DNA from: Parabacteroides sp.
Lineage (GTDB): Bacteria; Bacteroidota; Bacteroidia; Bacteroidales; Tannerellaceae
Reading direction: 5' to 3'
Assembly: GCA_020026285.1 (NCBI GenBank)
Contig: JAHHQS010000098.1
Location: forward strand, 1 to 14,708
Length of the DNA stretch: 14,708 bases
Positions 1 through 14,172 of the stretch are shown piece by piece. Under the pieces are notes generated by a model, which was not told where the DNA came from, did no database searches, and saw only the letters and a program-made list of their open reading frames with translations. The position numbers and the translations under genes are program-made. How positions within the stretch are numbered: position 1 is the stretch's first letter; each line of letters begins with the position of its first letter.

Positions 1-484
1 AAAAACGACGCTCACTCAGCCTTATCTCCCTTATTTCGGCAAGCAAATGTTCAAAGTAATCTACACCTAAGAAAGCCCCGTTCTCCATTCGCTTATGATC
101 AAGTACATATCCACGGATGGCAAACTGACGGAGTACAAACGTACACCACTGACGGAACTGTGTGGCACGAACAGAATTGACGCGATACCCGACACTGATA
201 ATGGCATCAAGATTATAGAACATTGTTTGATAATTTTTCCCGTCTGCGGCAGTTGCCGAGTTTTTCTCGGTAACTGAATCTTTGACAAGTTCTCCGGATG
301 CGAATATGTTTTTTAAGTGCAGACTAATATTGTCAGTGGAGCAATCAAAAAGCTGCGCCATCGCCTTTTGTGTTGCCCAAATGGTCTCATCTTTATACAT
401 CACTTGAATCCCATCCTCTTTGCCTTCAAACATGAAGATAAGAAACTCAGCTGTACTATTTCGTATTTCTATATTCTTTGCCAT
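1..484 (-). CDS. RhuM-family protein, N-terminal part (runs off left edge)
   Basis: Reading the minus strand from an ATG at 484-482 gives 161 codons without a stop to the window edge, so the 3' end is missing. The visible part matches the N-terminal half of the RhuM (virulence RhuM) family as I know it. It has IWATQKAMAQLF (residues 35-46), a winged-helix-like segment, then DNISLHLKNI (51-60), then YNLDAIISVGYRVNS (90-104) followed by RATQFRQW (106-113), the family's most conserved stretch. It ends in EIRLSERRF (153-161), which in relatives leads into the C-terminal domain. Full-length members are about 330-350 residues, so roughly half is seen. The start lies 27 bases after the vsr stop, so it may be the last gene of the operon. 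RhuM genes often sit in restriction-modification loci, but the biochemical role is not established; the name comes from a Salmonella pathogenicity-island gene. Confidence 0.88.
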   Translation of the reverse strand, partial: MAKNIEIRNSTAEFLIFMFEGKEDGIQVMYKDETIWATQKAMAQLFDCSTDNISLHLKNIFASGELVKDSVTEKNSATAADGKNYQTMFYNLDAIISVGYRVNSVRATQFRQWCTFVLRQFAIRGYVLDHKRMENGAFLGVDYFEHLLAEIREIRLSERRF

Positions 485-511
485 AATTTAAATTATCACC
501 TTCGCAATTAT

Positions 512-1021
512 TCATTTCGATTTGCCATAACTTTCAATGGGTTCTGCCACCATGCTATATTCTTCTTCAGTTGTCTCATATGATTTGATTCTTCTATCCT
601 CAAGATAAATATGGTAAAGCGTGTATTCTAAAGCCTCTAAAGTCTGTTGGCGGACTTTCGGTTTCAACTGACATTCCCAAATGGTAATACAATGCCACCC
701 CATCGAAGTTAGCAGTTGCCGTTCCTCTATATCTCTACTCCGATTACGCTCAATTTTATTCTTCCAAAACTCAACATTTGTCTTTGGTAGAACGTAGTAT
801 TTGCATCCTTCGTGACCGTGCCAAAAGCAGCCATTTACGAAAATAACAGTTCTGTATTTACGTAAAACCAAATCGGGATGTCCTGGAAGCCGTGGGTGAT
901 TCAGCCTATACCGAAAGCCACGGCCGAACAAGAACTTTCTCACCAATAATTCCGGTTTCGTGTTCTTGCCCTTTATCGCAGACATGCAACGATGACGCTG
1001 TTCCTTGGTCAATTTATCCAT
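512..1021 (-). CDS. vsr: Very short patch repair (Vsr) endonuclease
   Basis: Vsr nicks DNA 5' of the T in T:G mismatches that arise when 5-methylcytosine deaminates, starting repair back to C:G. The 169-residue product is close to the usual 140-160. The N-terminal helix has RCMSAIKGKNTKPE (residues 11-24). The catalytic aspartate is D50 in LPGHPDLVL, and GCFWHGHEGC (64-73) supplies the second catalytic histidine (H68, E. coli H69 by eye) and zinc ligands C65, H70 and C73. The fourth expected ligand is C117 in WEC. The E. coli H64 position is Asn63 here, a variant I believe occurs in other Vsr proteins. The gene is in the same operon as a C5-cytosine methyltransferase, the expected pairing. 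It follows the helicase relic by 28 bases and precedes the RhuM gene by 27. The C-terminal tail after residue 140 is Glu/Lys-rich and probably disordered. Confidence 0.95.
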   Translation of the reverse strand: MDKLTKEQRHRCMSAIKGKNTKPELLVRKFLFGRGFRYRLNHPRLPGHPDLVLRKYRTVIFVNGCFWHGHEGCKYYVLPKTNVEFWKNKIERNRSRDIEERQLLTSMGWHCITIWECQLKPKVRQQTLEALEYTLYHIYLEDRRIKSYETTEEEYSMVAEPIESYGKSK

Positions 1022-1049
1022 TTATTAACATATTACTGACAGTTATCTA

Positions 1050-1313
1050 TTATTCTACAAATCTATCTATACATCCCTTTACTTTTTGTGGAAGATTCGA
1101 GAATTCTTGCGTTACTATTATTCCTCGTTCATCAATTGATTCAATATAGTCTTCTAACAATTCAATATCTTCAAAGGACATCCCGTACCTTAACATCCAT
1201 ATATGTTTCGTATTGTAAGTACCATATTTTGTCAAATTAGCCATTTTTTCGGCTTGTTCATCCGGACAACGTTCATTGTATTTGACGAATGCTACTTGAA
1301 AGATATTGCACAA
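1050..1313 (-). pseudogene. C-terminal relic of a DEAD/DEAH-box helicase (probable)
   Basis: An 87-codon open frame starts formally at TTG (1313-1311); the first ATG is codon 24 (1244-1242). An in-frame TAA lies at 1331-1329. The sequence reads like the extreme C-terminus of a large defence-island DEAD/DEAH helicase: MANLTKYGT, then HIWMLRYGMSFEDIELLEDY (residues 37-56), then SIDERGII (59-66). Proteins I recall with this ending are several hundred residues long and carry helicase motifs upstream, all absent here. Codons 2-23 still look like helicase sequence although no good start precedes them, which favours a truncated relic over a small gene. It lies 44 bases after the 319-residue gene and 28 before vsr, so it may be transcribed and, from codon 24, even translated. 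The alternative is a real small protein of about 64 or 87 residues. The family match is from memory. Confidence 0.5.
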
Positions 1314-1336
1314 AATAATGTCCCTAATTTATGCAA
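1306..1336. repeat. Small inverted repeat at module junction
   Basis: The arms ttgcacaaa (1306-1314) and tttatgcaa (1328-1336) can form a 9-base-pair stem with one G-T pair and a 13-base loop. It sits between the end of the 319-residue gene and the first codons of the helicase relic, exactly where the three-gene block ends. No T-run follows on the minus strand, so it is not a convincing terminator. It could be an mRNA processing or stabilising hairpin, a trace of the rearrangement, or chance. Confidence 0.25.
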
Positions 1337-1357
1337 CGTTTATTGATGATTTTCATT

Positions 1358-2317
1358 TTACTTTTTTATTATTTCATCGATTGGTAGCATATATATATAA
1401 TCTTCCGGATTCGAATAGGATTCAGTATTATACTGATTTGCTAAAGCGTAACAAATTTGCACATCAGGATATTTCTGGGCAATAGCCGCTATAGAAAGAG
1501 TTGATAGTTTATTGTTCATTGGACTGATTACTATATTATAATCTTTCCTATTCTCGTCAACAATCTTACCAATTTCTTTGATATTTTGCTCCAGATTTTT
1601 ACATGAGAATTGAAAATTTGAAGCTCGAGAATTTTTTTCAAGTAATTTTTCGAAATTCGAACGATTAATTTCGCTTAGAGATTCATTATGACTTTCTGTT
1701 GGCGAAGCCATACCTAAATATAACTTACTAGGCTCGAAAACCTCTATCAATGTTTGAGCACGTTCATATTCAAAACCGACTAATATAATTAGTAACAAAT
1801 CCTTTATTGGTGACATATCGCCAGAATAGCCAACAACAGAACGTATTGTCCTTACCCCTTTACTAAGCCAAGGTAACGAAGTACCCTCTTCATAGGATGA
1901 GTATCTACTCGACGGACAATAACACAGATGTATATCAGTAAATTCAACTATTGAAGAGGATAAGATTTTTATTATTATCAACAATGTTTCTCTAGTAAAT
2001 GTTGATACATCAACATATAGGTGTTCTTTTTTGCTTGTTGTTATTGCATCAAACAAATTATCATAATTATCCAACGGATTCTCAAGAGAGAGTTCTATGA
2101 TAGAAGATCGTCCTATGAATAGTTCTTTTAAACACTCAGCATTCTTCTCTGTTTCTGTATAGTTATTTGGAAAGTAGCAAATAACAGCCTCAATAGATTC
2201 ATTCTTGGAAATCTCATTAGGTATTATTAAACATCTTTTCTCAAAACTTGAACTACAAATAAACAAAGAATCGTTAACTATCTCTTTATCTATACTGTTT
2301 ATTAATATTTTTTTCAT
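1358..2317 (-). CDS. Uncharacterised protein, probable double Rossmann-like fold
   Basis: I do not recognise a named family for this 319-residue protein. It has no signal peptide or clear membrane segment and looks cytoplasmic. Its layout suggests two alpha/beta halves. The first has a hydrophobic strand ending in FICSSSFEKRC (residues 19-29), a strand at 43-49 (EAVICYF), then YVDVSTFTRE (101-110) leading into a very hydrophobic helix. The second begins LLIILVGFEYERA (175-187), continues LYLGMASPTESHNE (199-212), and ends with NIVISPMNNK (261-270) before an alanine-rich helix and a final strand. A strand followed by a polar Ser/Thr/Lys loop and a helix, as at 101-110 and 261-270, recalls ligand-binding loops of Rossmannoid sensors such as CARF domains; this is inference. 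It starts 3 bases after the stop of the ORC/CDC6-like ATPase gene, so the two are probably translationally coupled. It could be the sensor or effector of that three-gene module. Confidence 0.85.
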   Translation of the reverse strand: MKKILINSIDKEIVNDSLFICSSSFEKRCLIIPNEISKNESIEAVICYFPNNYTETEKNAECLKELFIGRSSIIELSLENPLDNYDNLFDAITTSKKEHLYVDVSTFTRETLLIIIKILSSSIVEFTDIHLCYCPSSRYSSYEEGTSLPWLSKGVRTIRSVVGYSGDMSPIKDLLLIILVGFEYERAQTLIEVFEPSKLYLGMASPTESHNESLSEINRSNFEKLLEKNSRASNFQFSCKNLEQNIKEIGKIVDENRKDYNIVISPMNNKLSTLSIAAIAQKYPDVQICYALANQYNTESYSNPEDYIYMLPIDEIIKK

Positions 2318-2320
2318 ATC

Positions 2321-4126
2321 TTAAATAGGATTATTACCGTCAAACAATAGTAATTGAGTAGCCGAAGAACTGTCATCTTCGGTAAATTTAAACTGTGCTA
2401 AAAATCTCTTAGTATCAATCATTGCCATTCTCAATTTGGCGCTATCCATAAATTTGTAACCGGCAAAACTTGTAGCATCCAACTTGAAATGAGGTGCCAA
2501 AATTCTACTTAATATGATTAAGCGATTTCTTCCAGTACCTGTTTTATTTCCAATTGTACTTTTATGGAAATAACCCAGCTGTTCTCCCATGTCAATTATT
2601 TCATTCATTTCGTCATCTGGAGTATCTGTAATTGCCACAGAGAACACTCTTCTTTCTGAGGAATTAGAAGTAAGCTGCAAATGAAATAATTGTCCCAAAG
2701 AGTCTATCATTCGATATAATTTTTCCAATTGTATTTGCCTAGTGTTATTATTGTCAATATCTTTTTTAAGTTTTTCAAACTCACCAACCAAATAGTTGTT
2801 AGAGTATTTTTTTATAACTTCATCTTGAATAGAAGGTTTGATGCTGGTAATATTATCTTCATTTGCTCCAAGTTCTGTAATTGCTAACGAATACATTTCT
2901 TGCGCAGGAGCTAAGAAATGTCGAATAATACCGGAAGACACAGCTACAAGTTGATCAAAACCAGCATAGCTATATGTAGAGCCTGCTTTATGATTCTGTT
3001 GCAACCGTGTTATATATTCAGGTCTTGCATAGCGTCTTGCTGCATCCCCACCTGCATATTTTTTCTCAGGATCTGCATAATCTATCAACATCTGATTATA
3101 TATCTCTTGAATCTTTAGCTCTTGTTCTTTATCCTCTGGAAAGAAATCTTTTGTCTCAATATCAAGGTTCAAATATCTCTTTAGTCTTTTCTTAACAATT
3201 TCTTGAAGTCGTTCATTATACTTACTTTTACTACTTGAATAAACTGTAGAAATGTTTATCTCAGAATAATCATGAGGTGCGTCTATTCTTTTCTCGTTAT
3301 TCGTCAAATGTGTTTTATAATCTAACTGGGTAGAGATCTTAAAACATATGTCTTTTGTTGTGCGATATGACACCCAAGTGTTCAACACCTTTGTTTGAGC
3401 CACATTTAGATAGCCAGCATCGTCAATCAAAATATACAAAGGTTTATCTTGAGGGAAAAATGGTAAAGATTTTAAAGACACAAGTAGTGGTTTCATAAAA
3501 TCTATGAAATCAACAATTGGTCCATCATATGGAATAGAAGTATCTTTTGACAAAGCTATTTTATTGCAATAGATTCGACAGGAACGATTTATCCGTTCTA
3601 CCTCTTTTGCCATTAACTCCATCATTGTTAGTCCATCCTTGTCTGTATCGTTTGGTAATTCAACAATGTTGTTAACACCGCAGTAAGAAAGAACATCCCG
3701 AAAATCAGTATTATAATATTGCCATATCTGCTCTTTATAATCATTTAATATATTCCCCAAATAGCATCCAACCGACTTATACACATTAGACATTACGTAT
3801 GTCGTTAACAAGTGCTCATTTAATATAATTTCGGCATGAATCTCAAGGCGCGCCAAGTCAGGAATATTTATATTTGTTAGTTTTATAGGAACGTATACAG
3901 CAAAATAATCCAGCTCAGATATTTGGCAATGCTTGGCTAAACACTGACAATCTGGTTGTATGTAGCGGAACATCATACTTTTACCTGAACCTCTTGGACC
4001 ATTAATAAATGTATGTCCTTTTTCTAATACTTGATAAAAGTCAGGAAAAACATCAACAAATAAATCGACAACATCCTGAGCGGAGTTCTGTTCTGGAGTC
4101 TTTATTTCAAATGGATTTTCTTTCAT
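2321..4126 (-). CDS. ORC/CDC6-like AAA ATPase
   Basis: A 601-residue cytoplasmic P-loop ATPase. The Walker A motif is GPRGSGKS (residues 43-50), very near the N-terminus, and a clear Walker B is YILIDDAGYLN (231-241) after a long insertion. A sensor-1-like strand, CFKISTQ (261-267), follows. Asp-Asp followed by Ala-Gly rather than the usual Asp-Glu is notable, since the catalytic glutamate would be replaced by alanine. Downstream, a Lys-rich helical part (residues 300-400) and the segment SGIIRHFL (about 404-411) fit a lid plus winged-helix region as in ORC/CDC6-type proteins. Prokaryotic members are commonly annotated 'ORC-CDC6 family AAA ATPase' and occur in conflict systems. Its first four bases overlap the HD gene's end (ATGA, 4126-4123), so the two are translationally coupled. 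It probably acts as the nucleotide-driven switch of the three-gene module. The fold call is firm; the subfamily is less so. Confidence 0.88.
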   Translation of the reverse strand: MKENPFEIKTPEQNSAQDVVDLFVDVFPDFYQVLEKGHTFINGPRGSGKSMMFRYIQPDCQCLAKHCQISELDYFAVYVPIKLTNINIPDLARLEIHAEIILNEHLLTTYVMSNVYKSVGCYLGNILNDYKEQIWQYYNTDFRDVLSYCGVNNIVELPNDTDKDGLTMMELMAKEVERINRSCRIYCNKIALSKDTSIPYDGPIVDFIDFMKPLLVSLKSLPFFPQDKPLYILIDDAGYLNVAQTKVLNTWVSYRTTKDICFKISTQLDYKTHLTNNEKRIDAPHDYSEINISTVYSSSKSKYNERLQEIVKKRLKRYLNLDIETKDFFPEDKEQELKIQEIYNQMLIDYADPEKKYAGGDAARRYARPEYITRLQQNHKAGSTYSYAGFDQLVAVSSGIIRHFLAPAQEMYSLAITELGANEDNITSIKPSIQDEVIKKYSNNYLVGEFEKLKKDIDNNNTRQIQLEKLYRMIDSLGQLFHLQLTSNSSERRVFSVAITDTPDDEMNEIIDMGEQLGYFHKSTIGNKTGTGRNRLIILSRILAPHFKLDATSFAGYKFMDSAKLRMAMIDTKRFLAQFKFTEDDSSSATQLLLFDGNNPI

Positions 4127-5115
4127 AATGAACTATTTACACATTGATGAACATAATCACCTGTTAATTTGTTGTTACTTCGTTCTAATTGTGCCCCACA
4201 ATACTCAAAAACATTATTTATTGATAACGTTGGATATCCCTTTTCCTCTATACGATAAGATATTGTATCAAAGAAAGGTTCAAACCCTTCATCTATAAAT
4301 TCTATAGAAATAATAATCGAATGGAATTGATACTCATAGCTAACAAAACGATTATAGTACAAACATTCCTGGAATGTCTTGAATGTTCTTGTATATATTT
4401 CATCCAACAAATAAATAGAAGACTCACCTTTCTTATATCTATTTTGAACTTGATTCTTAGTGAGAGAAAAGCCCATCTGAATACAATGACTGTCTTTATC
4501 TGGATTGAAGTTGTACAAACTTTCAGAGAAAGCATGATACAATTTGCTATCCTCAGGTATTAAGTCCTTTTTTAGCAAGTAAGAAGACGCACGACTGTTT
4601 TCATCCGCAAGTTCATCACCAAATCTTAACAAAGCTGCTAGTTCACGGATTCTCACATCATGCCCCGAGATAGAGGTCTTGTATGGCAAATTCCCAATCG
4701 GATCATTTTTGCCTGAATGCGCTTTAGCTATATCCCCAATAATTTTTCTCTCAATTGTATCAACGTTTAAATTTTCCAGAAGATATCTGCCAGATTTTTC
4801 ATGACCGTCTCTGCCATTAAAGATATGTCCCGCATCATGAATTTGAATCGCGACCAATAGTATAAAGCATTCATATGGAGTAAGGTATGAACAATCTTTC
4901 AGTATGGAAGATACTTTAACCATAACCATTTTTACATGATTAGCACTGTGATCATTTAGATACACAGTATTATCCAGTCTTGTAGTAATCGCTTTAACTT
5001 CATTATGGATCTCTGAATTCATAAACTGTTTAAAAGTGCGATATATAGCAACATAGTCTTTTTCCGATGGAAAATCCTGACTGCTTTTTGTTTCAAAATA
5101 TTCTTCTAAATTCAT
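4123..5115 (-). CDS. HD-domain phosphohydrolase-like protein
   Basis: A 330-residue protein whose N-terminal two thirds hold a complete HD metal-binding set. The first histidine is in NDHSANH (residues 54-60), the HD doublet is H93-D94 in IHDAGH, further histidines are H97, H105 and H133 (KAHSG), and the last aspartate is D167 in LLRFGDELAD. All ligands needed for a metal-dependent phosphohydrolase or nuclease are present. The segment LAALLRFGDELADE resembles HD domains in bacterial conflict systems, including those attached to Hsp90-like ATPases. The remaining 130 or so residues are beta-rich and unrecognised. The substrate cannot be told: nucleotides, cyclic nucleotides and single-stranded DNA are all known for HD enzymes. 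It starts 10 bases after the AIPR stop and overlaps the ATPase gene by 4 bases, so it opens the nested three-gene block and is expressed with it. Confidence 0.87.
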   Translation of the reverse strand: MNLEEYFETKSSQDFPSEKDYVAIYRTFKQFMNSEIHNEVKAITTRLDNTVYLNDHSANHVKMVMVKVSSILKDCSYLTPYECFILLVAIQIHDAGHIFNGRDGHEKSGRYLLENLNVDTIERKIIGDIAKAHSGKNDPIGNLPYKTSISGHDVRIRELAALLRFGDELADENSRASSYLLKKDLIPEDSKLYHAFSESLYNFNPDKDSHCIQMGFSLTKNQVQNRYKKGESSIYLLDEIYTRTFKTFQECLYYNRFVSYEYQFHSIIISIEFIDEGFEPFFDTISYRIEEKGYPTLSINNVFEYCGAQLERSNNKLTGDYVHQCVNSSL

Positions 5116-5125
5116 TTTACATTAT

Positions 5126-7243
5126 TTACGGCATTACATATCCCTTATCTTCAACATTGCTGACAATCTTCAAGAGTCTCTTACATTGGGCAGACGAAGG
5201 AAGAACCATTTTAGCTATAAATCTAGTTGCAATAGACTTAATAAAATCAAGGTCTCCGTACGAGAGAACATTTTCTTTTAAAAGTTCGTTATAAACCCTC
5301 ATCCAATAGTCAGCACCCAAATTAAATATCTCAACGCTTGCTTCAATGTTTGAATTGAATTTGTGCGCTCGTTTAGCAGCAGCTTCTGTTGTTTTAATCT
5401 CCTTTTGGGAAACAAGGGATTTAATAAATTCGTCAGAGAGTTCAAACGGAACTTTCTTATAGTCATCCCAAACTGCAAGCGTTCTGGATATCGTTCTAAC
5501 AAGGCCTCCACCAGCTTGTTTTGTCAAAAACTTCTGTGTATCAAAAGCTAAACGAATCAACTCATTTGCAAGAGCCGGATACAGTGTCTGTTTATTCCAA
5601 ATCGTAACCCAGTCAAGATCGGCATCCTTTGGCAAAATTGATATCAGTTTTGCAATTGTGTATGGCACAATCTGAGCTTTATCTCCTCCTTTAGGATACC
5701 ATTCGGACTTATTGATCATTACGTCCAATTCATCAAACATAATGACGGAGCAGATTCCTTTCTTAAAGAACACCTCATTAATACTATCCTTTGATTTATC
5801 ATAAAGTTCTTCAACATAATCCGCAAAACGATTGAAGTTGATGGCAGAGCTTTGACAAACCTGGTGAGGATTCATACGAATAGTATTCAAACATTTCGCC
5901 AGCTTTTCCTTCTTGACAACCTGATTTTTCGGACTTTTCTCGCAGAAGGTTTTTCGTTGCGCTTGTGTAAGTTTCATTTGTTCCTGTTCCCATTTTCCAC
6001 GAGAACGCTCGTAGAACCAACGAGTCTGATATGGTTTACCTGCAACAGGAGGAGCAAGAACCTTTTGCGATAGTTTCTCCATCATTACATGGAATGGGTG
6101 ATTAGAGAAAAAATCGGCATCCGAAACAGGATTTTGGCAATTAGCGCATTTTGAGATTGTTTTAGTAATATTGTTATAACGTTCAACCTCTTCCTCAGAC
6201 ATATCGTTGTCCACATTCAGCACAGTCAGCTTCATCGGAACAAACAAATTGTCCATGCCTTTTTTGTCCTCTTTGCGAATAATTGCATTAGCTAACGAAG
6301 CGGTTGTCTGACCACCATTTATAATTTGTAAATCCTTAAAATGAGTAATTCGAGTGTTATCTGCAGAAAAACCTATTGAACGGGCAACAATAGCAATGCC
6401 GTTATTATAGGTAAAGAAATTCTCTGGACTATTAATGATAGTATTTCGGATACCCTTGTTTACCTTACCACGAACACTCAGGAAAGCCCGCACATTGCCT
6501 TGCAATAATTTACTCCCATATTTCAAATAGATATCTGCCAAGAACTTTCCTGGAACAATTCCAAGATATGCATCATAGTCGCTACTATCTCCTAAATCTG
6601 CTTTTAGATATTGAATCCCCTCGCAATCAAAATCTTTTGTATCAAACTCAACAATCTCACTTGCATCGGACATAAATGTTTGGAACAGCCGTTCCAGCGT
6701 CCAGATATTTAACTCTACCGGTCTCTCAAGAAAATCTTCTTGAGAGACACTCTTCACCTGCTTACTAAGAATCGAGTTAGAAATAATATAAAACTTGAAG
6801 CGAAGAATCTCTGTGTCCAACAGTCCTTTGCCAATTTTCTTTCGAAATTCTTTTGCTAAAATAATGGCAGGATCAGAATCGTCACAATAGTCACTCATCT
6901 TGCCGTTGACAACTTCGTCAAGGAAATTGCACATGTGAGTATACAAATCCACGATGCGGGTATTGGTCAACGTGTTTACGGCATCACGCTCATTGGTAAA
7001 ATCACTTGCAATCAATATGAGTGCACTGTCAGCTTCGTCGTAAGCATAAGCATCAAAAGCCATGATACGACCACGCTTGCCTCTCATTTCAATAGACATC
7101 GGCATCGGATCATTAAATTCCCCGATAGATTCCAGTTCTTCTAATGTTTTTAGAATAAACTGAGTTTCCGGTTCTGTTCCTTCGTGATCGGCATCAAATC
7201 TAAGCTGATCAATAAATTGCGCTCTATATTCTTCAATCTCCAT
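5126..7243 (-). CDS. AIPR-family protein (Mza-type system component)
   Basis: The 705-residue product belongs to the AIPR family (abortive infection phage resistance), typically found in restriction-modification operons. The diagnostic core lies in the middle. NVRAFLSVRGKVNKGI (residues 250-265) is followed by FFTYNNGIAI (276-285), IINGGQTTASL (307-317), and the stretch around SKCANCQNPVSDADFFSNHP near 370-390. The N-terminal 100 residues carry a pattern of spaced acidic residues on predicted strands (AFDAYAYDEAD, 62-72, then LILIASDF, 75-82) that could be a nuclease-like fold; that is inference. The C-terminal half is helical and unassigned. The gene starts 12 bases after the DUF4420 gene and ends 10 bases before the HD gene. 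With the MutL-like ATPase, Z1 and DUF4420 proteins it completes the Mza-type gene set, in which its exact activity is unknown to me; a role as DNA-targeting or effector subunit is likely. Confidence 0.93.
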   Translation of the reverse strand: MEIEEYRAQFIDQLRFDADHEGTEPETQFILKTLEELESIGEFNDPMPMSIEMRGKRGRIMAFDAYAYDEADSALILIASDFTNERDAVNTLTNTRIVDLYTHMCNFLDEVVNGKMSDYCDDSDPAIILAKEFRKKIGKGLLDTEILRFKFYIISNSILSKQVKSVSQEDFLERPVELNIWTLERLFQTFMSDASEIVEFDTKDFDCEGIQYLKADLGDSSDYDAYLGIVPGKFLADIYLKYGSKLLQGNVRAFLSVRGKVNKGIRNTIINSPENFFTYNNGIAIVARSIGFSADNTRITHFKDLQIINGGQTTASLANAIIRKEDKKGMDNLFVPMKLTVLNVDNDMSEEEVERYNNITKTISKCANCQNPVSDADFFSNHPFHVMMEKLSQKVLAPPVAGKPYQTRWFYERSRGKWEQEQMKLTQAQRKTFCEKSPKNQVVKKEKLAKCLNTIRMNPHQVCQSSAINFNRFADYVEELYDKSKDSINEVFFKKGICSVIMFDELDVMINKSEWYPKGGDKAQIVPYTIAKLISILPKDADLDWVTIWNKQTLYPALANELIRLAFDTQKFLTKQAGGGLVRTISRTLAVWDDYKKVPFELSDEFIKSLVSQKEIKTTEAAAKRAHKFNSNIEASVEIFNLGADYWMRVYNELLKENVLSYGDLDFIKSIATRFIAKMVLPSSAQCKRLLKIVSNVEDKGYVMP

Positions 7244-7255
7244 AGTGTAACGGAT

Positions 7256-8167
7256 TTAAAGTTTATATTCTTCTAATTCAGAAAGAAAAATCTCGTACTG
7301 AATTCTGTTTATTGCATTCGGTATGTTTTTTCTGCATAAGCGAGGGAAATCGTTGCTTACATTGTACATTGAGAATCCCACATTCGTAAATACGAATTTG
7401 TCGTATTCTGGAGAGAAATCGAATGCGTACATACTCAGTTTAGACATGAAAGTCTCTCTATTTTGAGCTGTCCCCATTTTTGCCATTAGGTTTTGAACCA
7501 GTACATTCAATTTTATACCACTGAATGTTGGACTCATCTTTTCCAAACAATAAATAGCAAGATAGCCCTCGTCATCTCCATCCAGTTGCTCAAGTGATGA
7601 AATCTTTACAGAATCTTTGCCTGCACTTATTGCCTTTATCTCATACCAAACACTCTCTGTAGAATAATCCTTATGGGTCTTTTCTGGACCCATCCAGCTA
7701 TCTAATGCCATATTCACACCATAGTGAGGAATCATATAATCCTGCATAAAAAGCAGTTCGCCTATCAACCCCATTACCTCATTGTCATTCATTCCACCAT
7801 TATTTGGTCGGAACAATTTTTTCCATGAGAAATATCTTGAACAAAGTGTTTTATAAGCATCTTCATCGTCCTTAATAGCTTCCGTAGAATCGAGCAAATC
7901 CTGGCAAAACGTACTAAAATATTCCAGCAGCTCTGAATTACAGAGTGAAAAGCGAAGAATATAATTCTCGCCACTCTTTCCCTGCTGTACTGTAATCACA
8001 TCCGACTGAGCTATTCTAACTGGAACGTATGTACCTCTAAAATCAAAGGCATAGTTTCCTTTCTCATCCTTTCCTACAAAAAGACTGAGGTCGCGGTTTT
8101 CACCAACACGGATAAAAGCTCCGCTTTGGAATCCTTGCGAGAATGTTGTAGATAATTTATTCTTCAT
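7256..8167 (-). CDS. PD-(D/E)XK motif protein (DUF4420 family nuclease)
   Basis: A 303-residue predicted restriction-endonuclease-fold protein. The nuclease core is visible in order. An early glutamate lies in GLIGELLF (residues 133-140), E137 being the expected helix residue. D167 in HKDY is followed eight residues on by the E-X-K motif E176-I-K178 in WYEIKA. The conserved SSLEQLD (190-196) comes next, as in the DUF4420 family. Length fits the family's roughly 300 residues. It is the best candidate for the DNA-cutting subunit of the methylase/MutL/Z1/AIPR system; Vsr downstream is a repair enzyme. The start overlaps the Z1 gene's 3' end by 11 bases, and the stop is 12 bases before the AIPR start, so it should be made in step with both. 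Unmethylated or otherwise non-self DNA is the presumed target, but no target sequence can be read from the protein. Confidence 0.92.
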   Translation of the reverse strand: MKNKLSTTFSQGFQSGAFIRVGENRDLSLFVGKDEKGNYAFDFRGTYVPVRIAQSDVITVQQGKSGENYILRFSLCNSELLEYFSTFCQDLLDSTEAIKDDEDAYKTLCSRYFSWKKLFRPNNGGMNDNEVMGLIGELLFMQDYMIPHYGVNMALDSWMGPEKTHKDYSTESVWYEIKAISAGKDSVKISSLEQLDGDDEGYLAIYCLEKMSPTFSGIKLNVLVQNLMAKMGTAQNRETFMSKLSMYAFDFSPEYDKFVFTNVGFSMYNVSNDFPRLCRKNIPNAINRIQYEIFLSELEEYKL

Positions 8168-11048
8168 CCTCTTCTATTTCGTCTGGTTCATCAAGCATGT
8201 TAAGCTGATAATATGTTTTATTAACTTTATATTTCTTGGTTTTACCTGTTTCTTTTAATCCAGGAAAACCAATAGCAAAAGCTATCATTTTATTGCCATT
8301 AAGTTTCTCTATGAATTTTAAGGCATTCTTGTTGGCTTCAATATTTTCTGGCTCTACCGGTTCGATGAGCATAATTATCAATACAGGTTTTCTGTGTGGA
8401 AGATGCTCAAAATATGCTTTAATAGGAATATGCCGTCCTCCAAACTCAGAACCTTCTCTCGCCCAAACTTCTCTGCATCGTTTTTCTGCCAAATCTATCT
8501 CATCTTGACTTAAGCAGAACTTTCCTTCTCGTAAACCAAGAATCCTACGACGACTCGAAATTTGAATTACATGATCATGTTCCTCAATCTGACGTTTCGG
8601 ACAACGTATCATTTCAAGTCCTGGTATGTCATAAAAGGTCTGCCCATCACCACCTTCGAAAACAATATCCCATTTATCTACTCCTTCTGTTTCTTTGTCG
8701 CAAATAAAATCAATTAAGTTTTGCCGGTTAAATTTCATGTTAACTAATGAACATTTTATATTAGACAGGAAGTCTACCACCAATTCTTTGGACACATCAG
8801 AAAAATATCTAGATTTATCAATATCTGAGCATACATCCTCATCTTTGTATTTGTCGACATTCGCGAAACCAAATTTATAATCATTTTCAAACAGGTGGGC
8901 AGTAAAACATTTTACTTGATTCCAGTTCTCTTCATTATGTTCCGCCTTGACACTAAGGTAAGGGGTATCACAGATATTTCCATAGTAGGATTCCATCATC
9001 AACAATTCGTACGCGGTCCGCATCTTATTGTTGGCTGTTATCTGTAATTCGTCGCAATAGTCACGAACTTTAATGCCGAAATCTTTAGGAGTAAGATGTT
9101 GCTCAAACATTTTCTTAATATCTGCTTTCAATTCGGTAGTGGCTGTCGCTATTTCTCTATACCAAGTTGCACTTGCTTGACTTGTCCATATTTGGAACAA
9201 ATCAGCATAACCAGGTCGATAACCAAACCAACGCCCCATCTGCATCAACACATCAAATGTTGCAGTGTTTCGATAGAAATAGCTTACAAGCAAGCCCTCT
9301 AATGTGAGACCTCGCGAAAGAGCAAGTCCTCCAATAGCAATTACTCTCAACGAAGGATTAGATTTGTAATCTAATTTGCTTGCGCTACTACCATTAACAA
9401 CGATAATTTCCATCTTTGGAACATCAGCTTCAATATCGAACACAGCACCTAATAAATTCTTCTTTTTTATAACATCAATAAAACAGATATCAGTAATATT
9501 ATCAAAATGTTTTTTCCAAAGTCGTTTCAGTTCTTTATACAGTGACAGATGAGCATTCTTTGAGGTATCTTCGTCAAAGTTGTATTTTAGTATTTGAATA
9601 AAGTTGTTCTGTATTTCTTCAATATGTTCCTTAATCACCTGTTGCACCCTTATGAAACGAGACATATTAACCAACATACTTCTTGGTTTAGAGGCATGTC
9701 CTCTTAAATCTCGAATAACATTTGCCAGATAATAACAATAGATGGACTCCTTCAGCGAATTTGGCAAGACTCCATTCCATTCTTTTTTGTGACGAGAGTA
9801 GAATGTCCCAGAATTAAGTTCTTCTATATTTTCGTGTAAATCAGTCCTATATTCATCTGAAGTGTAGTCTGGTTCTTCAACATCAGTTATAAAACGTAAA
9901 TTGCGATAGTACTCTTTATCCTCATAAAAAATTTTATCGGCACCAATATATGAGGAAGGGGTCGGTAACGTATATATGAAATGCTCTGGAAACAAATCTG
10001 CATTCTTCATACTGTCCACCGAATCCGGATCTATAAAAACATTTGCAAATGGAGTAGCAGTAAAACCAATATAATTCGCAGTCTGAAAAAGATTGCAAAT
10101 CTTACGAATTATAGCGTTTGTCTTAGTTGGATCTGTATTATCTTTTTTTGTATTAACCGATGCATTGTCTGCCTCATCGTCAATAAGAAGCATTGGATGG
10201 TTTATACTATTTGTACGAACATCCATATTCTGGTTTTTCAACCAATCATGCAATTTTGTCAGAACTGATACATTTTTTTTAACGACAAAAAGGACCAGAG
10301 AATTATGCTCCGATAAAGTCGTTGAAATCAAATTACTCCCTTTAACAAAATCTTTTACACATGTAGTAAAAGAAGTAGCTCTACGTTGCTTGTTGTCTTT
10401 ACCAACTCCTACCTTCCCCTCGCGAATATGTTTTTCAACCTTACGAATAGTGTACCCAACAACACTTTCATCAATACGTTCTTGTGTTTGCTGACGAAGA
10501 CTTTCTGTTATACCAGCTAGAAGAATAACAACTTTATATCCTGCATCAGCAGCTTTACAAATCAGACCTGAATATGTAGCGGTTTTACCAGACTGTACAT
10601 CACCAATTATTAAGCCCCTCTTCAAACGTTTACCTTCAAATTCTTCCTTTGGATTGTATAAACAATTCATTATGTCAGGCAATGTCTTTTCGTGCAAAAG
10701 ATTAATACTTTTGTCGTCAATTGAAGTGTGTTCTTTTAAATAACGATAATATCTCTCCCAAAAATAGCTGTCATCTACTTTATCATTGAAATACCACTTC
10801 TTTTGTTCATAATCATCATAAATAATATTGCCCAATACATGAGTGATTTTCTCTCGGTATTCTATTTCTTCCAACAATTTATTTTTGTCTTCCTCATCAC
10901 AATCAATACCAGAGAAGGCTATTGCGTCTTCAATCGCAGGCTTAATATTTTCCAAAGATGGAACAAAGCCCGACAGTTCCTTCATAAGTTCCAAACGTGC
11001 GGAAATTATGAGTAGAATCTTATTATATGCTTCGTTTGTTAATTTCAT
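8157..11048 (-). CDS. Z1-domain SF2-type ATPase/helicase
   Basis: A 963-residue protein with a superfamily-2-like ATPase core and the Z1 domain of MutL/MORC-linked restriction systems. The Walker A motif is GDVQSGKTAT (residues 149-158), the DEAD-type motif II is LLIDDEAD (287-294), motif III-like GFTATPFAN is at 328-336, and the Z1 signature lies at about 571-612: GGLALSRGLTLEG, then QMGRWFGYRPG, the last containing the arginine-finger-like motif VI. The N-terminal 140 residues are helical and the C-terminal 300 unassigned, with an acidic tail ending in EPDEIEEDEE. It probably uses ATP to move along or remodel DNA for the nuclease partner. The start codon lies within the end of the ATPase gene (26-base overlap) and is preceded by AAGG, one of the few Shine-Dalgarno-like matches here. 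In Mza-type loci this gene regularly follows the GHKL ATPase. Confidence 0.95.
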   Translation of the reverse strand: MKLTNEAYNKILLIISARLELMKELSGFVPSLENIKPAIEDAIAFSGIDCDEEDKNKLLEEIEYREKITHVLGNIIYDDYEQKKWYFNDKVDDSYFWERYYRYLKEHTSIDDKSINLLHEKTLPDIMNCLYNPKEEFEGKRLKRGLIIGDVQSGKTATYSGLICKAADAGYKVVILLAGITESLRQQTQERIDESVVGYTIRKVEKHIREGKVGVGKDNKQRRATSFTTCVKDFVKGSNLISTTLSEHNSLVLFVVKKNVSVLTKLHDWLKNQNMDVRTNSINHPMLLIDDEADNASVNTKKDNTDPTKTNAIIRKICNLFQTANYIGFTATPFANVFIDPDSVDSMKNADLFPEHFIYTLPTPSSYIGADKIFYEDKEYYRNLRFITDVEEPDYTSDEYRTDLHENIEELNSGTFYSRHKKEWNGVLPNSLKESIYCYYLANVIRDLRGHASKPRSMLVNMSRFIRVQQVIKEHIEEIQNNFIQILKYNFDEDTSKNAHLSLYKELKRLWKKHFDNITDICFIDVIKKKNLLGAVFDIEADVPKMEIIVVNGSSASKLDYKSNPSLRVIAIGGLALSRGLTLEGLLVSYFYRNTATFDVLMQMGRWFGYRPGYADLFQIWTSQASATWYREIATATTELKADIKKMFEQHLTPKDFGIKVRDYCDELQITANNKMRTAYELLMMESYYGNICDTPYLSVKAEHNEENWNQVKCFTAHLFENDYKFGFANVDKYKDEDVCSDIDKSRYFSDVSKELVVDFLSNIKCSLVNMKFNRQNLIDFICDKETEGVDKWDIVFEGGDGQTFYDIPGLEMIRCPKRQIEEHDHVIQISSRRRILGLREGKFCLSQDEIDLAEKRCREVWAREGSEFGGRHIPIKAYFEHLPHRKPVLIIMLIEPVEPENIEANKNALKFIEKLNGNKMIAFAIGFPGLKETGKTKKYKVNKTYYQLNMLDEPDEIEEDEE

Positions 11049-12540
11049 CCTTGTAGTTATCTAAAAGTTTTTCCTCAACAACTTTATATTTGCAGAATGG
11101 CTCTGATTTCATCAGATCAGAAACAATCTCGACTATAGATTTCTTGTTAAAAGATTTTGCCAAGTTTACCATATAAATCCCAAGTTGGAAAATCTCATCG
11201 ACACGATTATCTGGTTCATCTTGACTGATTGCATCATTAGACTTGTCAATGTAAATCTGCTGAGTCGGAACGTTTTGCTCAATTTCTTTCAAAAGCATCT
11301 CAAGCAGAGTATAGTCTTCTTCTGACATTCTATCCCTCACCATCTGGAACACTTTGCTCTCACGATTGATTTGATAATAAAAAGTCTTTCCTCTGCCTTC
11401 CATTCTATCCCAAATATAGTCAATATCCTCAACATTTTCTTTTCGACCACGATGGGTTTGCTTCCTAACAGAAATATCCATCGCTTCAATAACTGTTTGG
11501 CGCAATTGACGCTGAATCTGCTTTGGAATAGAAGCTGTTTGTTTCTTTATATCAATACTCCATATGTCATCAAGTGAATTCGGAATATCTACTCTAACTC
11601 TAGCATTTTTTGTGAGTTCACCACGCGGTTTCATCCCAAACCAAGTTCCCCAAATTATCAAACGCTTATTTCGATAAACATAGAAACCTTGTTTGATTCT
11701 TAATGTCTCTACTCCTCCTATGAGTTTTCTGTATTCATCGTTTAAATCTGTTGCAAATGGCAAGATATATGGTTTAACCCAGATTTGCCGTTCTTGACCC
11801 TTACTGTCACGAATAGCAATGGAACGTGCTTTCTTCGTTGTTGTCTTAGAATGTGATTCAAGGAAAGGATCCATTGGTTTTATTCTCCCTTTATTCAAGT
11901 ACATCTTGATCTGCCCCTTACCTTTTGCTGAAAGAAAGTTATGAAAAATCAGAGCAATATTATTGGCTACAGATTCTTTAAGTTCAACAAGAGCATCATA
12001 AACCATTCCACCACTTGATTTCTCCAACACATCGAAATCCTGCCATAGTACAAGCGTGCCATGTGGCAATTCGAGGAGAGAGTGAATATAAGGAAGTGCT
12101 TTTATTTCATTTTGTGACAGCTCCTTCACCACCCACTCTTTTCTATTTTGAATATAATTATAATCCCAAGAATAGCTACTAATCTTTTCTTCCTGCAAAC
12201 TGACAACCGTCAAAATTCTACATTGAGACAAAGAGGCAGATTTCATTCCTAAACCGAATCGTCCCAAATCATTTGCATTTCTTTCAAGTTCAGAGTCCCT
12301 ACTTCCATACCTCATAGCTTCAAAAAGGACGCCTGCAGACATTCCTTCTCCATCATCTAAGATTCCCACAACAAGATCATCAATAGGTTCTGAAGGGAAG
12401 AATAGTTTGACTACGCTGCAATTTGCACTAATACCATTGTCAATAATATCAGCAATAGCAGCTTCGAAAGAATACCCCATTGAACGCATAGACCCCATAA
12501 GAGTATCAGCTTGTGGAATGCTTTGTCTATAAGTACCCAT
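11023..12540 (-). CDS. MutL/MORC-like GHKL ATPase
   Basis: A 505-residue Hsp90/MutL-type ATPase. The Bergerat nucleotide-binding motifs are in the N-terminal 105 residues. Motif I is AIADIIDNGISA (28-39), with the Mg-binding asparagine N35. Motif II is ILDDGEGMS (60-68), and motif III is LGRFGLGMKSASLS (92-104), forming the ATP lid. The transducer region follows; KGRIKPMDPF and VRVDIPNSLDDIWSIDIKK (about residues 215-330) are typical of the S5-like domain with its ATP-contacting lysine. The usual catalytic glutamate of motif I is aspartate (D31) here. Such ATPases are the 'MutL' component of Mza and related predicted restriction systems, where ATP-driven dimer closure is thought to clamp DNA or signal to the nuclease. 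It starts 2 bases after the methylase stop and overlaps Z1 by 26 bases. Confidence 0.93.
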   Translation of the reverse strand: MGTYRQSIPQADTLMGSMRSMGYSFEAAIADIIDNGISANCSVVKLFFPSEPIDDLVVGILDDGEGMSAGVLFEAMRYGSRDSELERNANDLGRFGLGMKSASLSQCRILTVVSLQEEKISSYSWDYNYIQNRKEWVVKELSQNEIKALPYIHSLLELPHGTLVLWQDFDVLEKSSGGMVYDALVELKESVANNIALIFHNFLSAKGKGQIKMYLNKGRIKPMDPFLESHSKTTTKKARSIAIRDSKGQERQIWVKPYILPFATDLNDEYRKLIGGVETLRIKQGFYVYRNKRLIIWGTWFGMKPRGELTKNARVRVDIPNSLDDIWSIDIKKQTASIPKQIQRQLRQTVIEAMDISVRKQTHRGRKENVEDIDYIWDRMEGRGKTFYYQINRESKVFQMVRDRMSEEDYTLLEMLLKEIEQNVPTQQIYIDKSNDAISQDEPDNRVDEIFQLGIYMVNLAKSFNKKSIVEIVSDLMKSEPFCKYKVVEEKLLDNYKDEINKRSI

Positions 12541-12542
12541 AG

Positions 12543-13649
12543 TTATTCCTTATTGTATGATGAATCGTATTCCAGAATCTGCGCCATCACAGCTTTAGAC
12601 AATAACGGAGGAACCGCATTACCTATCTGCTGCTGTATGCTCATATGAGGCCCTTGAAAGATAAACGTATCAGGAAAACTTTGTAAACGTGCCGCTTCCC
12701 TCACCGATAAACCTCTGTCTTGATATGGATGAATTAGCATACTCTTCCTATAGTTTGAAATGACAACAGAAGGGCAATTTGCTTTCAGACGTTTATATAT
12801 TCCACTATGACAACGGGTCTTGTCTGAATAATTTCGCATCAAGGACTCCGGAATAGCTCTCCAATTCTCACCTTGACCGATATATTTGTAACGTTGCATC
12901 ACAAGGTCGTTACTCTTTGACACAAAATTCTGCTTTGATTCTATTGAACCTTTTCTCATCTGTTGCGCATAAGGGCTAGATTCCTTTATTGACTTAGTGT
13001 AAGGCAATGAATCTATCATATCACCATTATGTAAAACAGGTAAATCTCCAATAGCTTCTTCTACACTCACTTTATAATCAAAAGGCTTTGGAAACTCAAA
13101 GTCAATTCCTTGGTTGTTTCCGACCATAAACATTCTCATCCGTCTTTGTGGAACACCATATTCATCAGCCCATAGAACCTTCCATTTGACCTTATAGCCT
13201 GGCTCTATCTCCTCAAAACAATGTTTTATCATTTCTATTGTCTCTCCATTGTTCATTTTAGTCATTCCCCAAACATTTTCAAGGACAAACCATCTAGGCT
13301 TTATTTCTGAGACCAAACGAACAAACTCTTTGAACAATAAATTATTAGGATTGTCCATATTGCGAGACATCGTATTTGACATAGAAAATCCCTGACAAGG
13401 AGGGCCTCCCATGATTATAAATACTTCCTCGTCTTTATTTAAGAAATCTGTAGCTTTGACATCCCGAATATCGCCACATATTACTTTTGCTCCTTTGTGA
13501 TTAAGTTCAAAAGATTTGGCTGCGTGAGGATTAACCTCAATAGCATAGCGAACCTTAATTCCCGCCATTGCCCCCCCCAGACTTAATCCGCCTGCTCCTG
13601 AAAATATGTCTATACCGATTTTTTTCATAAGCTGAGCATCATAAGTCAT
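12543..13649 (-). CDS. DNA (cytosine-5-)-methyltransferase
   Basis: This enzyme methylates C5 of cytosine in a specific site using S-adenosylmethionine, marking self DNA for the operon's nuclease system. All main motifs of the family are present in 368 residues. Motif I is DIFSGAGGLSLG (14-25), motif IV is GGPPCQGFS with nucleophile Cys85, motif VI is ENV (124-126), and motif VIII is QRRMRMF (168-174). The target-recognition region spans about 200-300, motif IX is SVREAARLQSFPD (315-327), and motif X is QIGNAVPP (341-348). The ATG at 13649 overlaps the regulator gene by 11 bases; a second ATG at codon 8 (13628) gives the start MKKIGIDIFSGAGG typical of the family and may be the true one. The run of eight G at 13571-13578 lies within motif I. 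The recognition sequence cannot be predicted. The gene is followed after 2 bases by the GHKL ATPase. Confidence 0.97.
   Translation of the reverse strand: MTYDAQLMKKIGIDIFSGAGGLSLGGAMAGIKVRYAIEVNPHAAKSFELNHKGAKVICGDIRDVKATDFLNKDEEVFIIMGGPPCQGFSMSNTMSRNMDNPNNLLFKEFVRLVSEIKPRWFVLENVWGMTKMNNGETIEMIKHCFEEIEPGYKVKWKVLWADEYGVPQRRMRMFMVGNNQGIDFEFPKPFDYKVSVEEAIGDLPVLHNGDMIDSLPYTKSIKESSPYAQQMRKGSIESKQNFVSKSNDLVMQRYKYIGQGENWRAIPESLMRNYSDKTRCHSGIYKRLKANCPSVVISNYRKSMLIHPYQDRGLSVREAARLQSFPDTFIFQGPHMSIQQQIGNAVPPLLSKAVMAQILEYDSSYNKE
13571..13578. repeat. Homopolymer of eight C (eight G in the methylase gene)
   Basis: Eight consecutive C on the plus strand read as eight G in the coding strand, spanning codons 24-27 (Leu-Gly-Gly-Ala) of the methyltransferase, at the end of motif I. 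In this AT-rich sequence such a run is conspicuous, and alternative glycine codons were available. The reading frame is intact as written, so this is the ON state. A gain or loss of one base would shift the frame before the catalytic cysteine. Confidence 0.85.
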
Positions 13650-13869
13650 TATTATCTTTTGTTGTAGTTAGCAACTGTCGAATGTCAACATCCAACAAAT
13701 TCGCTATTTCTTGCAATTGAATAATAGATGGTTGCGATTTATTAGAACACCATCTTGAAATTGTGTTCTCTGATTTGCCCATTTGAGTTGCCAACCATCT
13801 ATTGGTTCGTTGCCTTTCAGCCAGTACCGCCTTAATCCTATTCATCATTATTTGTTGATTGTTCGACAT
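13639..13869 (-). CDS. XRE-family transcriptional regulator (controller protein)
   Basis: A 76-residue protein that is almost entirely a Cro/C1-type helix-turn-helix domain. WLATQMGKSENTISRW (residues 25-40) holds the two helices of the DNA-binding unit, and QPSIIQLQEIANLLDVDIRQLL (46-67) forms the last two helices. Short single-domain XRE proteins of this kind sit directly upstream of methyltransferase genes in many Bacteroidota restriction loci and act like C proteins, binding the operon promoter as a dimer and timing expression of methylase and nuclease. It is the first gene of the operon, and its stop overlaps the methylase start by 11 bases. A candidate promoter and a small inverted repeat lie just upstream, fitting autoregulation. 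ATG codons 8 and 9 are alternative starts, but the first gives a complete first helix. Confidence 0.93.
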   Translation of the reverse strand: MSNNQQIMMNRIKAVLAERQRTNRWLATQMGKSENTISRWCSNKSQPSIIQLQEIANLLDVDIRQLLTTTKDNNDL

Positions 13870-13870
13870 C

Positions 13871-13887
13871 AGTATTCAAATTATACT
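13871..13887. promoter_or_regulatory. Candidate operator for the XRE regulator
   Basis: The half-sites agtat (13871-13875) and atact (13883-13887) form a perfect inverted repeat separated by 7 bases, a size suited to a small XRE dimer. It lies between the candidate -7 box and the regulator's start codon, where binding would block transcription. The half-sites are short and AT-rich, so chance cannot be excluded. Confidence 0.35.
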
Positions 13888-13901
13888 CGTTATATTGCAA
13901 A

Positions 13902-13932
13902 CAAAGATACATCTAATTTCCCATATAGCCAA
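13902..13932 (-). promoter_or_regulatory. Candidate Bacteroides-type promoter of the operon
   Basis: On the minus strand, TATCTTTG (13909-13902) matches the Bacteroides -7 consensus TAnnTTTG exactly, and TTGG (13932-13929) lies about 20 bases upstream, the right distance for the -33 element. Transcription would begin near 13896, giving a leader of roughly 25-30 bases before the XRE start codon. No other gene-free space in the operon holds such a pair, so it could drive the whole operon. Confidence 0.55.
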
Positions 13933-14043
13933 GTAGATAAGCAACAAAAACATCGTTTAAAGGAATGACTACAGTTGGTATAAAGATAGGTAAAAGAACA
14001 CATGTATCGTTTTTATCTATTCCATCAATGAATTTCACCTTTC

Positions 14044-14085
14044 AAAAAATTATGCTGCACAAACATTATGTTCGCACAGCATAAT
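14044..14085 (-). terminator. Rho-independent-like terminator of the hipA-like gene
   Basis: The arms attatgctg (14049-14057) and cagcataat (14077-14085) are perfect reverse complements, 9 base pairs with a 19-base loop. Read on the minus strand, the hairpin is followed directly by a run of six T (14049-14044). It lies 88 bases after the hipA-like stop. The stem is AT-rich (four G-C pairs at most), so termination may be partial. Confidence 0.5.
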
Positions 14086-14172
14086 ATAAAATTCAATCAC
14101 ATCCTATCGCTCAACCACATAAAAATCAACCCTCTACCTCGTATCGCTTGGCAAATGGGCACACTATAATAG

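What the first reader, a model, noticed from the sequence alone, without database searches (positions are those of the whole stretch)
1358..5115. Three-gene HD / ORC-CDC6 ATPase / Rossmannoid module nested inside a Mza-type operon
The sequence shows three minus-strand genes with a 4-base overlap and a 3-base gap between them, placed between AIPR and vsr with only 10 bases after AIPR. They are not among the MutL, Z1, DUF4420 and AIPR genes I know for Mza-type systems. A complete HD hydrolase, a P-loop switch ATPase and a putative ligand-binding protein together suggest a self-contained sensing and effector unit, either a second defence system sharing the promoter or a backup that fires when the restriction system fails. 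The functional reading is inference.
Basis: partly seen in the sequence, partly recalled or inferred. Interest (0 to 1): 0.72.

Follow-up and report, generated by a model that had tools for sequence, protein, structure and literature searches.

The report
Methylase-linked HD, ATPase and CARF module
Three neighbouring genes from a gut bacterium turn out to be part of a four-gene set, found in many bacterial phyla, that pairs a DNA-marking enzyme with a sensor, a switch and a probable killing enzyme, and here a second defence system appears to share the same DNA-marking enzyme.

The parts
4123..5115 (-). HD-CE hydrolase (330 aa), proposed effector; putative metal-site residues H56, H60, H93, D94, H133, D167
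2321..4126 (-). ORC-CDC6-like AAA+ ATPase (601 aa), proposed switch
   Evidence: PF24389 377.5 bits; Walker A pattern in 50 of 51 loci (the exception L088 may have a wrongly set start)
1358..2317 (-). tandem CARF protein (319 aa), proposed ligand sensor
12543..13649 (-). m5C DNA methyltransferase of the module's clade, fourth member of the module
   Evidence: PF00145; clade MTase in 46 of 51 module loci; tree and AU test; same 4 plasmids as the ATPase
11023..12540 (-). MzaB-like GHKL ATPase
   Evidence: NCBIfam MzaB 266.8 bits, cut-off 850; HATPase_c_3
8157..11048 (-). [not shown]
   Evidence: NCBIfam MzaC 461.1 bits, cut-off 1500; PF10593
7256..8167 (-). MzaD-like PD-(D/E)XK protein (DUF4420)
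   Evidence: PF14390; NCBIfam MzaD 87 bits, cut-off 420
5126..7243 (-). MzaE-like AIPR protein
   Evidence: PF10592; NCBIfam MzaE 238.3 bits, cut-off 1050
1050..1313 (-). 87-codon ORF of unknown nature, TTG start; a counterpart was labelled only in the window's twin L038 (L032)
   Evidence: no family at a meaningful score
512..1021 (-). Vsr mismatch endonuclease, usual companion of m5C methylases (recalled)
   Evidence: TIGR00632 142 bits, cut-off 97.85; Vsr within seven genes in 5 of 51 loci

Best explanation
The three genes are the effector-switch-sensor part of a four-gene, methylase-coupled defence module: an m5C methylase marks host DNA; an ORC-CDC6-type AAA+ ATPase together with a tandem CARF protein detects infection (unmarked or replicating foreign DNA, or a nucleotide signal bound by CARF); and the HD-CE hydrolase is then unleashed, most likely on nucleotides, stopping phage growth. 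In this window a Mza-type second arm (MzaBCDE) lies between the methylase and the HD gene and, as only one methylase is present, relies on the same mark. Shown: the recurrent four-gene set, the family and predicted fold of the parts, the clade of the methylase and its co-occurrence with the module, the exchangeability of the first gene. Inferred: defence function, the order of signalling, nucleotide as substrate, and that both arms read the same methyl mark.
For: 49 of 51 loci have HD directly before the ATPase, 51 of 51 a CARF homologue directly after, 46 of 51 the clade methylase, in 33 of them directly upstream on the same strand (30 of these 33 with a gap of at most 28 bases or an overlap; three overlaps of 83-221 bases probably mean wrongly set starts). 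Plasmids: the ATPase (E<=1e-5) matches 4 of 72,556 records and the methylase (E<=1e-60) the same 4; three have the run methylase-HD-ATPase-CARF, the fourth, a 19-kb plasmid, has it across the record's start. Viral contigs: 3 distinct loci of 3 have all four genes. Control: in 247 Bacteroidota genomes a methylase at E<=1e-60 occurs in 2, the window's twin and one 40% identical. Distances of HD, ATPase, CARF and methylase correlate (r 0.49 to 0.84, 0 of 500 permutations as high). Methylases of module+Mza loci group with the module's; holding them with the Mza-only methylases is rejected (AU p 3e-30). First gene alternates: PRTase-CE (L031, L125, L130, L133) or calcineurin-like (L033, L127; L034 and L128 by resemblance) before the same ATPase family; seven of seven CARF partners tested from loci without HD-CE match CARF6.
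Confidence: 0.55

Rival explanations
1. A straightforward restriction-modification system: HD-CE is a DNA nuclease brought to unmethylated sites by the ORC-type ATPase; CARF only regulates.
For: Clade methylase in 46 of 51 loci; HD metal-site residues in 49 of 49; Vsr companion in 5 of 51.
Against: The same slot is filled by PRTase-CE and calcineurin-type proteins in relatives, and a phosphoribosyltransferase fold is not a DNA nuclease (general knowledge); HD-CE fold is nearest PPX/GppA and cyclic-nucleotide phosphodiesterases. Nothing excludes DNA as substrate.
Confidence: 0.25
2. HD-CE is an off-switch: a phosphodiesterase that destroys the CARF ligand, while the ATPase or another protein is the effector.
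For: Cyclic-nucleotide phosphodiesterases are among the closest folds; CARF pathways elsewhere use ring nucleases as off-switches (abstracts in listing).
Against: The first gene is the part seen to be exchanged (HD, PRTase, calcineurin), the pattern of an effector; PRTase is not a phosphodiesterase.
Confidence: 0.1
3. The methylase is only a neighbour in a defence island, without a functional link to the three genes.
For: Methylase is on the opposite strand downstream in 3 and elsewhere in the locus in 5 of 51; G418 and G520 have it without the module.
Against: 46 of 51 loci in many phyla, one side of a branch in the tree (support 90/97), identical set of 4 plasmids of 72,556, rarity of such methylases in 247 genomes.
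Confidence: 0.07
4. A guard or backup: the module fires when phage proteins disable the methylase or the Mza arm.
For: It sits in the same run of genes as the restriction genes; other cassettes lie in the same place, PDC-M33ABC in L129 and a GHKL ATPase set in L045.
Against: 42 of 51 loci have no Mza-type genes in the stretch read; their flanks were not scanned for other restriction systems.
Confidence: 0.12

Closest known systems
HD-CE / PRTase-CE / Calcineurin-CE nucleotide-targeting effector systems (Nicastro et al. 2023 NAR, doi 10.1093/nar/gkad879; abstract recalled, citation seen, paper not held)
   Same: HD-CE (PF24391), PRTase-CE (PF24390) and calcineurin-type first genes; ORC-CDC6-like ATPase (PF24389), whose origin in that paper is my guess.
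   Different: I could not check whether that paper describes the constant m5C methylase, its sharing with Mza-type genes or the ThyX neighbours.
CARF6 family of the CARF classification (Makarova et al. 2020 NAR; recalled, not held; PADLOC models seen)
   Same: Third gene is CARF6 by sequence and CARF by predicted fold.
   Different: No type III CRISPR or CBASS cyclase among the ten window proteins scanned.
Mza system and the Mza-like 'type II' system of Miller et al. 2022 (PMC9523054, section 11 read)
   Different: In 11 of 17 loci found here by Mza similarity the methylase is only 24-31% identical to the window's; the HD/ATPase/CARF genes are not in the section that I read.
BREX and BREX-related systems (PMC12839542, passages read)
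   Same: DNA methylase plus ORC/Cdc6-type ATPase plus a phosphatase/hydrolase.
   Different: No PglZ, BrxC or PglX match in the rows shown for the ten window proteins; m5C rather than N6-adenine methylase.
Clover (CloA HD dNTPase + CloB; PMC12265719, passages read)
   Same: HD hydrolase that hits the nucleotide pool under nucleotide control.
   Different: Two genes, no methylase, ATPase or CARF in the passages read.

Membership tests
HD-CE | match to PF24391 above its cut-off | tested here: met
   110.5 bits against 27
HD-CE | intact HD metal ligands | tested here: met
   H56, H60, H93, D94, H133, D167 in 49 of 49 aligned proteins; which of them bind metal is inferred
HD-CE | hydrolysis of nucleotides | not testable with these tools
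   needs purified protein
ORC-CDC6-like ATPase | PF24389 above cut-off and Walker A | tested here: met
   377.5 bits against 27; Walker A pattern in 50 of 51 loci
CARF6 | sequence match to CARF6 models and CARF fold | tested here: met
   [not shown]
CARF6 | binding of a cyclic oligonucleotide | not testable with these tools
   needs ligand assay
CBASS / type III CRISPR signalling | cognate cyclase (CD-NTase or Cas10) beside the CARF gene | tested here: not met
Mza | NCBIfam MzaB-E equivalog cut-offs | tested here: not met
   266.8/850, 461.1/1500, 87/420, 238.3/1050 bits; relatives of Mza, not members by that standard
[not shown]
   gene content in window against text (which writes DUF4220 where Pfam here gives DUF4420); no sequence comparison with their set was made
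BREX | BrxC, PglX, PglZ | tested here: not met
   no such match in the rows shown for ten window proteins
Restriction-modification | methylase protects host from a cognate cutter | not testable with these tools
   methylase present; cutting and protection need experiments

The most novel reading that the evidence does not exclude
One methylase serves two unrelated defence arms: a methylase native to the HD-CE/ORC/CARF6 module has been taken over by, or shared with, two Mza-type lineages whose relatives carry their own methylase. Within the module, recognition of unmarked DNA by the ORC-type ATPase produces or gates a nucleotide signal read by the tandem CARF, which unleashes an exchangeable nucleotide-destroying effector: a CARF pathway without CRISPR or CBASS cyclase, wired to DNA methylation, and linked in some lineages to thymidylate supply (ThyX beside the module).
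Probability: 0.3. Interest if true: 0.8.

Novelty: new variant of a known kind. Interest (0 to 1): 0.55.

Why it matters
CARF proteins are known as readers of signals made by CRISPR or CBASS cyclases. Here a CARF protein is a constant member of a methylase-linked set, with no cyclase among the ten window proteins scanned, which makes it directly testable what its ligand is and who makes it. The shared methylase also offers a clean case of how separate immune systems may come to depend on one self-mark, and a small plasmid-borne version (19 kb, Spirosoma) makes the system easy to move into a laboratory strain.

Tried and rejected
Rejected: that the three genes are constant Mza members (2 of 17 loci found by MzaE or MzaC similarity have them). 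Of those 17, 2 have the module (G001, the window's twin, and G416), 2 the clade methylase without module (G418, G520), 11 a methylase 24-31% identical to the window's (one of them, L104, has only the AIPR match and may not be Mza-type), 2 no methylase found (L158, L159); two further hit genomes (G474, G554) were not fetched. Rejected: that the methylase clade is exclusive to the module (G418, G520). Rejected: three-gene self-sufficiency.

Corrected on the way: my first gene caller missed ORFs that overlap longer ones; it hid the methylase in L069, L073, L080, L102 and the CARF gene in L054. tblastn and a second caller recovered them; the locus counts in this report use the second, while the distance test and first tree used methylases from the first. 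ThyX motif: my pattern missed L084 and L147, the alignment shows RHRTANVN there, so they are not deviant in the arginines.

Led nowhere: PDB sequence search with the CARF and HD profiles (no credible relative); closest solved methylases do not tell the recognition site; phage records gave one 6,963-base fragment; viral contigs gave 4 loci, two of them apparently copies. Foldseek alone ranked KaiC and dehydrogenases first for the CARF model, with low TM-scores; Csm6 and Csa3 appeared at ranks 31 to 44 with probability 1.00, as did an unrelated methyltransferase at rank 23; the second look put CARF proteins first. The L131 first gene was not identified. Methylases beside L034, L127/L128, L130 and L131 were not found, but their neighbours were scanned only in part. 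In L125 the first caller showed no CARF gene after the ATPase. A systematic scan of all flanks for cyclases was not made. Literature: the rows listed by searches (several lists capped) show no paper on this module; the two most likely papers are not held.
Full report
What is there. The window holds a run of minus-strand genes with small gaps or overlaps: m5C methylase, MzaB-like, MzaC-like, MzaD-like, MzaE-like, HD, ATPase, CARF, an 87-codon ORF, vsr (families). The window is 98.7% identical over bases 1-14121 to Phocaeicola massiliensis DSM 17679 (L038), so it probably comes from that species or a close relative, unless the run has moved between hosts.

Recurrence. A scan of genome contigs with an ATPase alignment gave 51 loci, from Bacteroidota, Pseudomonadota, Acidobacteriota, Bacillota, Planctomycetota, Verrucomicrobiota, Gemmatimonadota, Omnitrophota and others; many are metagenome bins. 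L040 and L041 come from one bin and are near copies, and L038 is the window's near twin; all are counted. HD directly before the ATPase: 49 of 51 (L066 starts inside the ATPase; L088, archaeal and only distantly related, has none; L056 counts, although its HD gene is split by an opposite-strand 288-codon ORF). CARF homologue directly after: 51 of 51. Clade methylase (over 36% identity to the window's): 46 of 51, of which 33 directly upstream on the same strand, 5 directly downstream same strand, 3 directly downstream opposite strand, 5 elsewhere within seven genes; not found in L048, L053, L065, L066 (each with a contig end beside the module) and L088. Another contig of the L065 genome (L169) has MzaE next to a 57% identical methylase. 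Mza-type genes in the stretch read: 9 of 51. Vsr within seven genes: 5 of 51 (arrangement).

Independent checks of the methylase link. Plasmids: tblastn of the ATPase (E<=1e-5) hits 4 of 72,556 records; tblastn of the methylase at E<=1e-60 hits 4, the same ones: Yoonia, Rhizobium leguminosarum, Spirosoma rhododendri, Agrobacterium salinitolerans. Reading them shows methylase-HD-ATPase-CARF in order (HD of Yoonia and CARF of Agrobacterium are labelled only with the second gene caller, and the Spirosoma set runs across the record's start). Viral contigs: L145, L146 and L147 (L148 appears to be its copy) have all four genes. Background: 247 Bacteroidota genomes hold a methylase at E<=1e-60 in 2 cases, the window's twin and a 40% identical one (G058) with no module gene in the 20 kb read round it. 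Pairwise distances: HD-ATPase r 0.82, ATPase-CARF 0.84, HD-CARF 0.71, methylase with each 0.49 to 0.53, none reached in 500 permutations; MzaC with methylase 0.79 in 7 loci (6 of 500), MzaC with HD, ATPase and CARF 0.40 to 0.51 in 8 loci (14 to 28 of 500). Host phylogeny is not controlled. That analysis used 44 methylases found by the first gene caller.

Whose methylase is it? Mza-type loci were sampled by MzaE in 201 genomes of the family (12 hits) and MzaC in 247 of the phylum (8 hits); 17 of the 19 distinct genomes were read. Two carry the module (G001, G416), two carry the clade methylase without it (G418, G520), eleven carry a methylase 24-31% identical to the window's, two none found. 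A tree of 69 methylases (44 module-only, of which L039's contig ends right after the methylase, 7 module+Mza, 10 Mza-only, 8 other) puts all 51 module methylases on one side of a branch (support 90/97, below the tool's star), the 7 of module+Mza loci inside it in a set of 15 with 8 module-only ones (100/100), and 9 of the 10 Mza-only methylases together (100/98). Forcing module+Mza with Mza-only is rejected, AU p 3e-30; long branches among the others are a caveat. A second, quicker tree with L069, L073, L080, L102 and L166 added and five rows (L104_o8, L069_o0, L031_o12, L132_o11, L129_m) dropped agrees; L129_m was a module methylase. In that tree the seven fall in three places. The MzaC tree (22 rows, quick method, G520 present twice as L103 and L166) has the module-bearing Mza genes in two separate sets (window/L040/L042 together with G418/G520; and L047/L051/L052/L062/L065). 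The gene orders differ: methylase-Mza-HD.. in the window, HD..-methylase-Mza in L040, HD..-Mza with a reversed methylase in L051 and L052, Mza and methylase on the opposite strand in L042, L047, L062. The simplest reading is that Mza-type genes joined a methylase of the module's clade at least twice. In the genomes of L047, L062, L051, L052, L042 and L040 the search finds one methylase of the clade per locus (two near copies in the L040/L041 bin) and otherwise matches of 30-37% identity.

Exchangeable first gene. Family searches with PF24389 in 395 Bacteroidota, 398 Pseudomonadota and 299 Bacillota genomes bring in other types: PRTase-CE in L031, L125, L130, L133; calcineurin-like in L033 and L127 (Pfam), L128 (same gene lengths as L127) and L034 (by the look of its sequence only); unknown in L131; proteins of over 1,200 residues in L035 and L132. 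The CARF partners of L031, L033, L034, L133, L128, L130 and L131 all match CARF6 models. Methylases of other classes stand beside some: N6/N4 in L031 and L133, D12-class N6-adenine in L033, an N6-type in L125; none was found in L034, L127/L128, L130 and L131, whose neighbours were scanned only in part. So coupling to methylation may be general, but is shown only for the HD type.

ThyX. A thymidylate synthase ThyX lies next to the module or its methylase in L073, L084, L147, L162 and L164: 5 of the 60 module loci printed (59 in its cluster count). In the Aquisphaera genome (L084) a ThyA exists elsewhere, and in the Omnitrophota genome (L073) a second ThyX match, so at least there it is not the only thymidylate synthase. 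My rough estimate of chance is well under one case, but I ran no formal control. It fits a nucleotide-directed effector and is otherwise unexplained.

How it would work. Taken together: host DNA marked by the methylase; ATPase as surveillance switch; tandem CARF as ligand-binding regulator; HD-CE as effector. Only the composition, order, predicted folds and co-occurrence are shown. That the substrate is a nucleotide rests on the recalled proposal of Nicastro 2023, on the PRTase alternative in the same slot, and on fold resemblance. That both arms read one mark rests on there being one methylase.

Novelty. The three families have names; the HD-CE and CARF6 labels belong to published classifications that I recall but could not read; the Mza-like part is described (PMC9523054, section 11 read; it calls mzaA a sigma factor). 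I did not find the methylase link or the sharing in the rows listed by searches. I therefore call it a new variant of a known kind. Papers: of PMC12839542, PMC12265719, PMC10853773, PMC12669027 and PMC10924106 I saw passages; of all others the search listing only.

Noticed in passing
L073:12756-13667, L084:9903-10802, L147:12576-13508, L162:8814-9752, L164:8795-9754: ThyX thymidylate synthase genes directly beside the module (or its methylase) in five loci of several phyla, 44-68% identical to each other, with the RHR signature.
   Followed up: partly
L129:4449-7966 and L045:5573-8938: Other cassettes lie between the methylase and HD: PADLOC PDC-M33ABC in L129, a GHKL ATPase with a sub-threshold response-regulator match behind it in L045. 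The slot seems to accept further arms.
   Followed up: partly
L102, L103, L166 (G418, G520): Mza-type genes with the module-clade methylase but no ORC-type ATPase match in the genome; in L102 and L103 a 688-aa gene, Schlafen-type helicase by Pfam in L102, follows MzaE instead.
   Followed up: partly
L056:7639-9986: HD gene split in two pieces by an opposite-strand 288-codon ORF.
   Followed up: no
L088:8934-12648: Archaeal relative: ATPase and CARF without HD, a Mutator-family transposase gene upstream.
   Followed up: no
L035 and L132: ORC-CDC6-like stretches inside proteins of over 1,200 residues, possible fusions of the module.
   Followed up: no
window:2-484: Gene cut by the window edge, matching PADLOC PDC-S05; its full-length counterpart (340 codons) follows vsr in L038.
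   Followed up: partly
window:14173-14703: Fragment at the window edge that looks HipA-like to me (recalled); PADLOC gives only a weak PDC-M03A match.
   Followed up: no
phage record MT838009.1:6536-6961: A 6,963-base 'Bacteriophage sp.' record from human stool ends in the first quarter of the window's ATPase gene at 99.3% identity; perhaps a bacterial fragment filed as phage.
   Followed up: no
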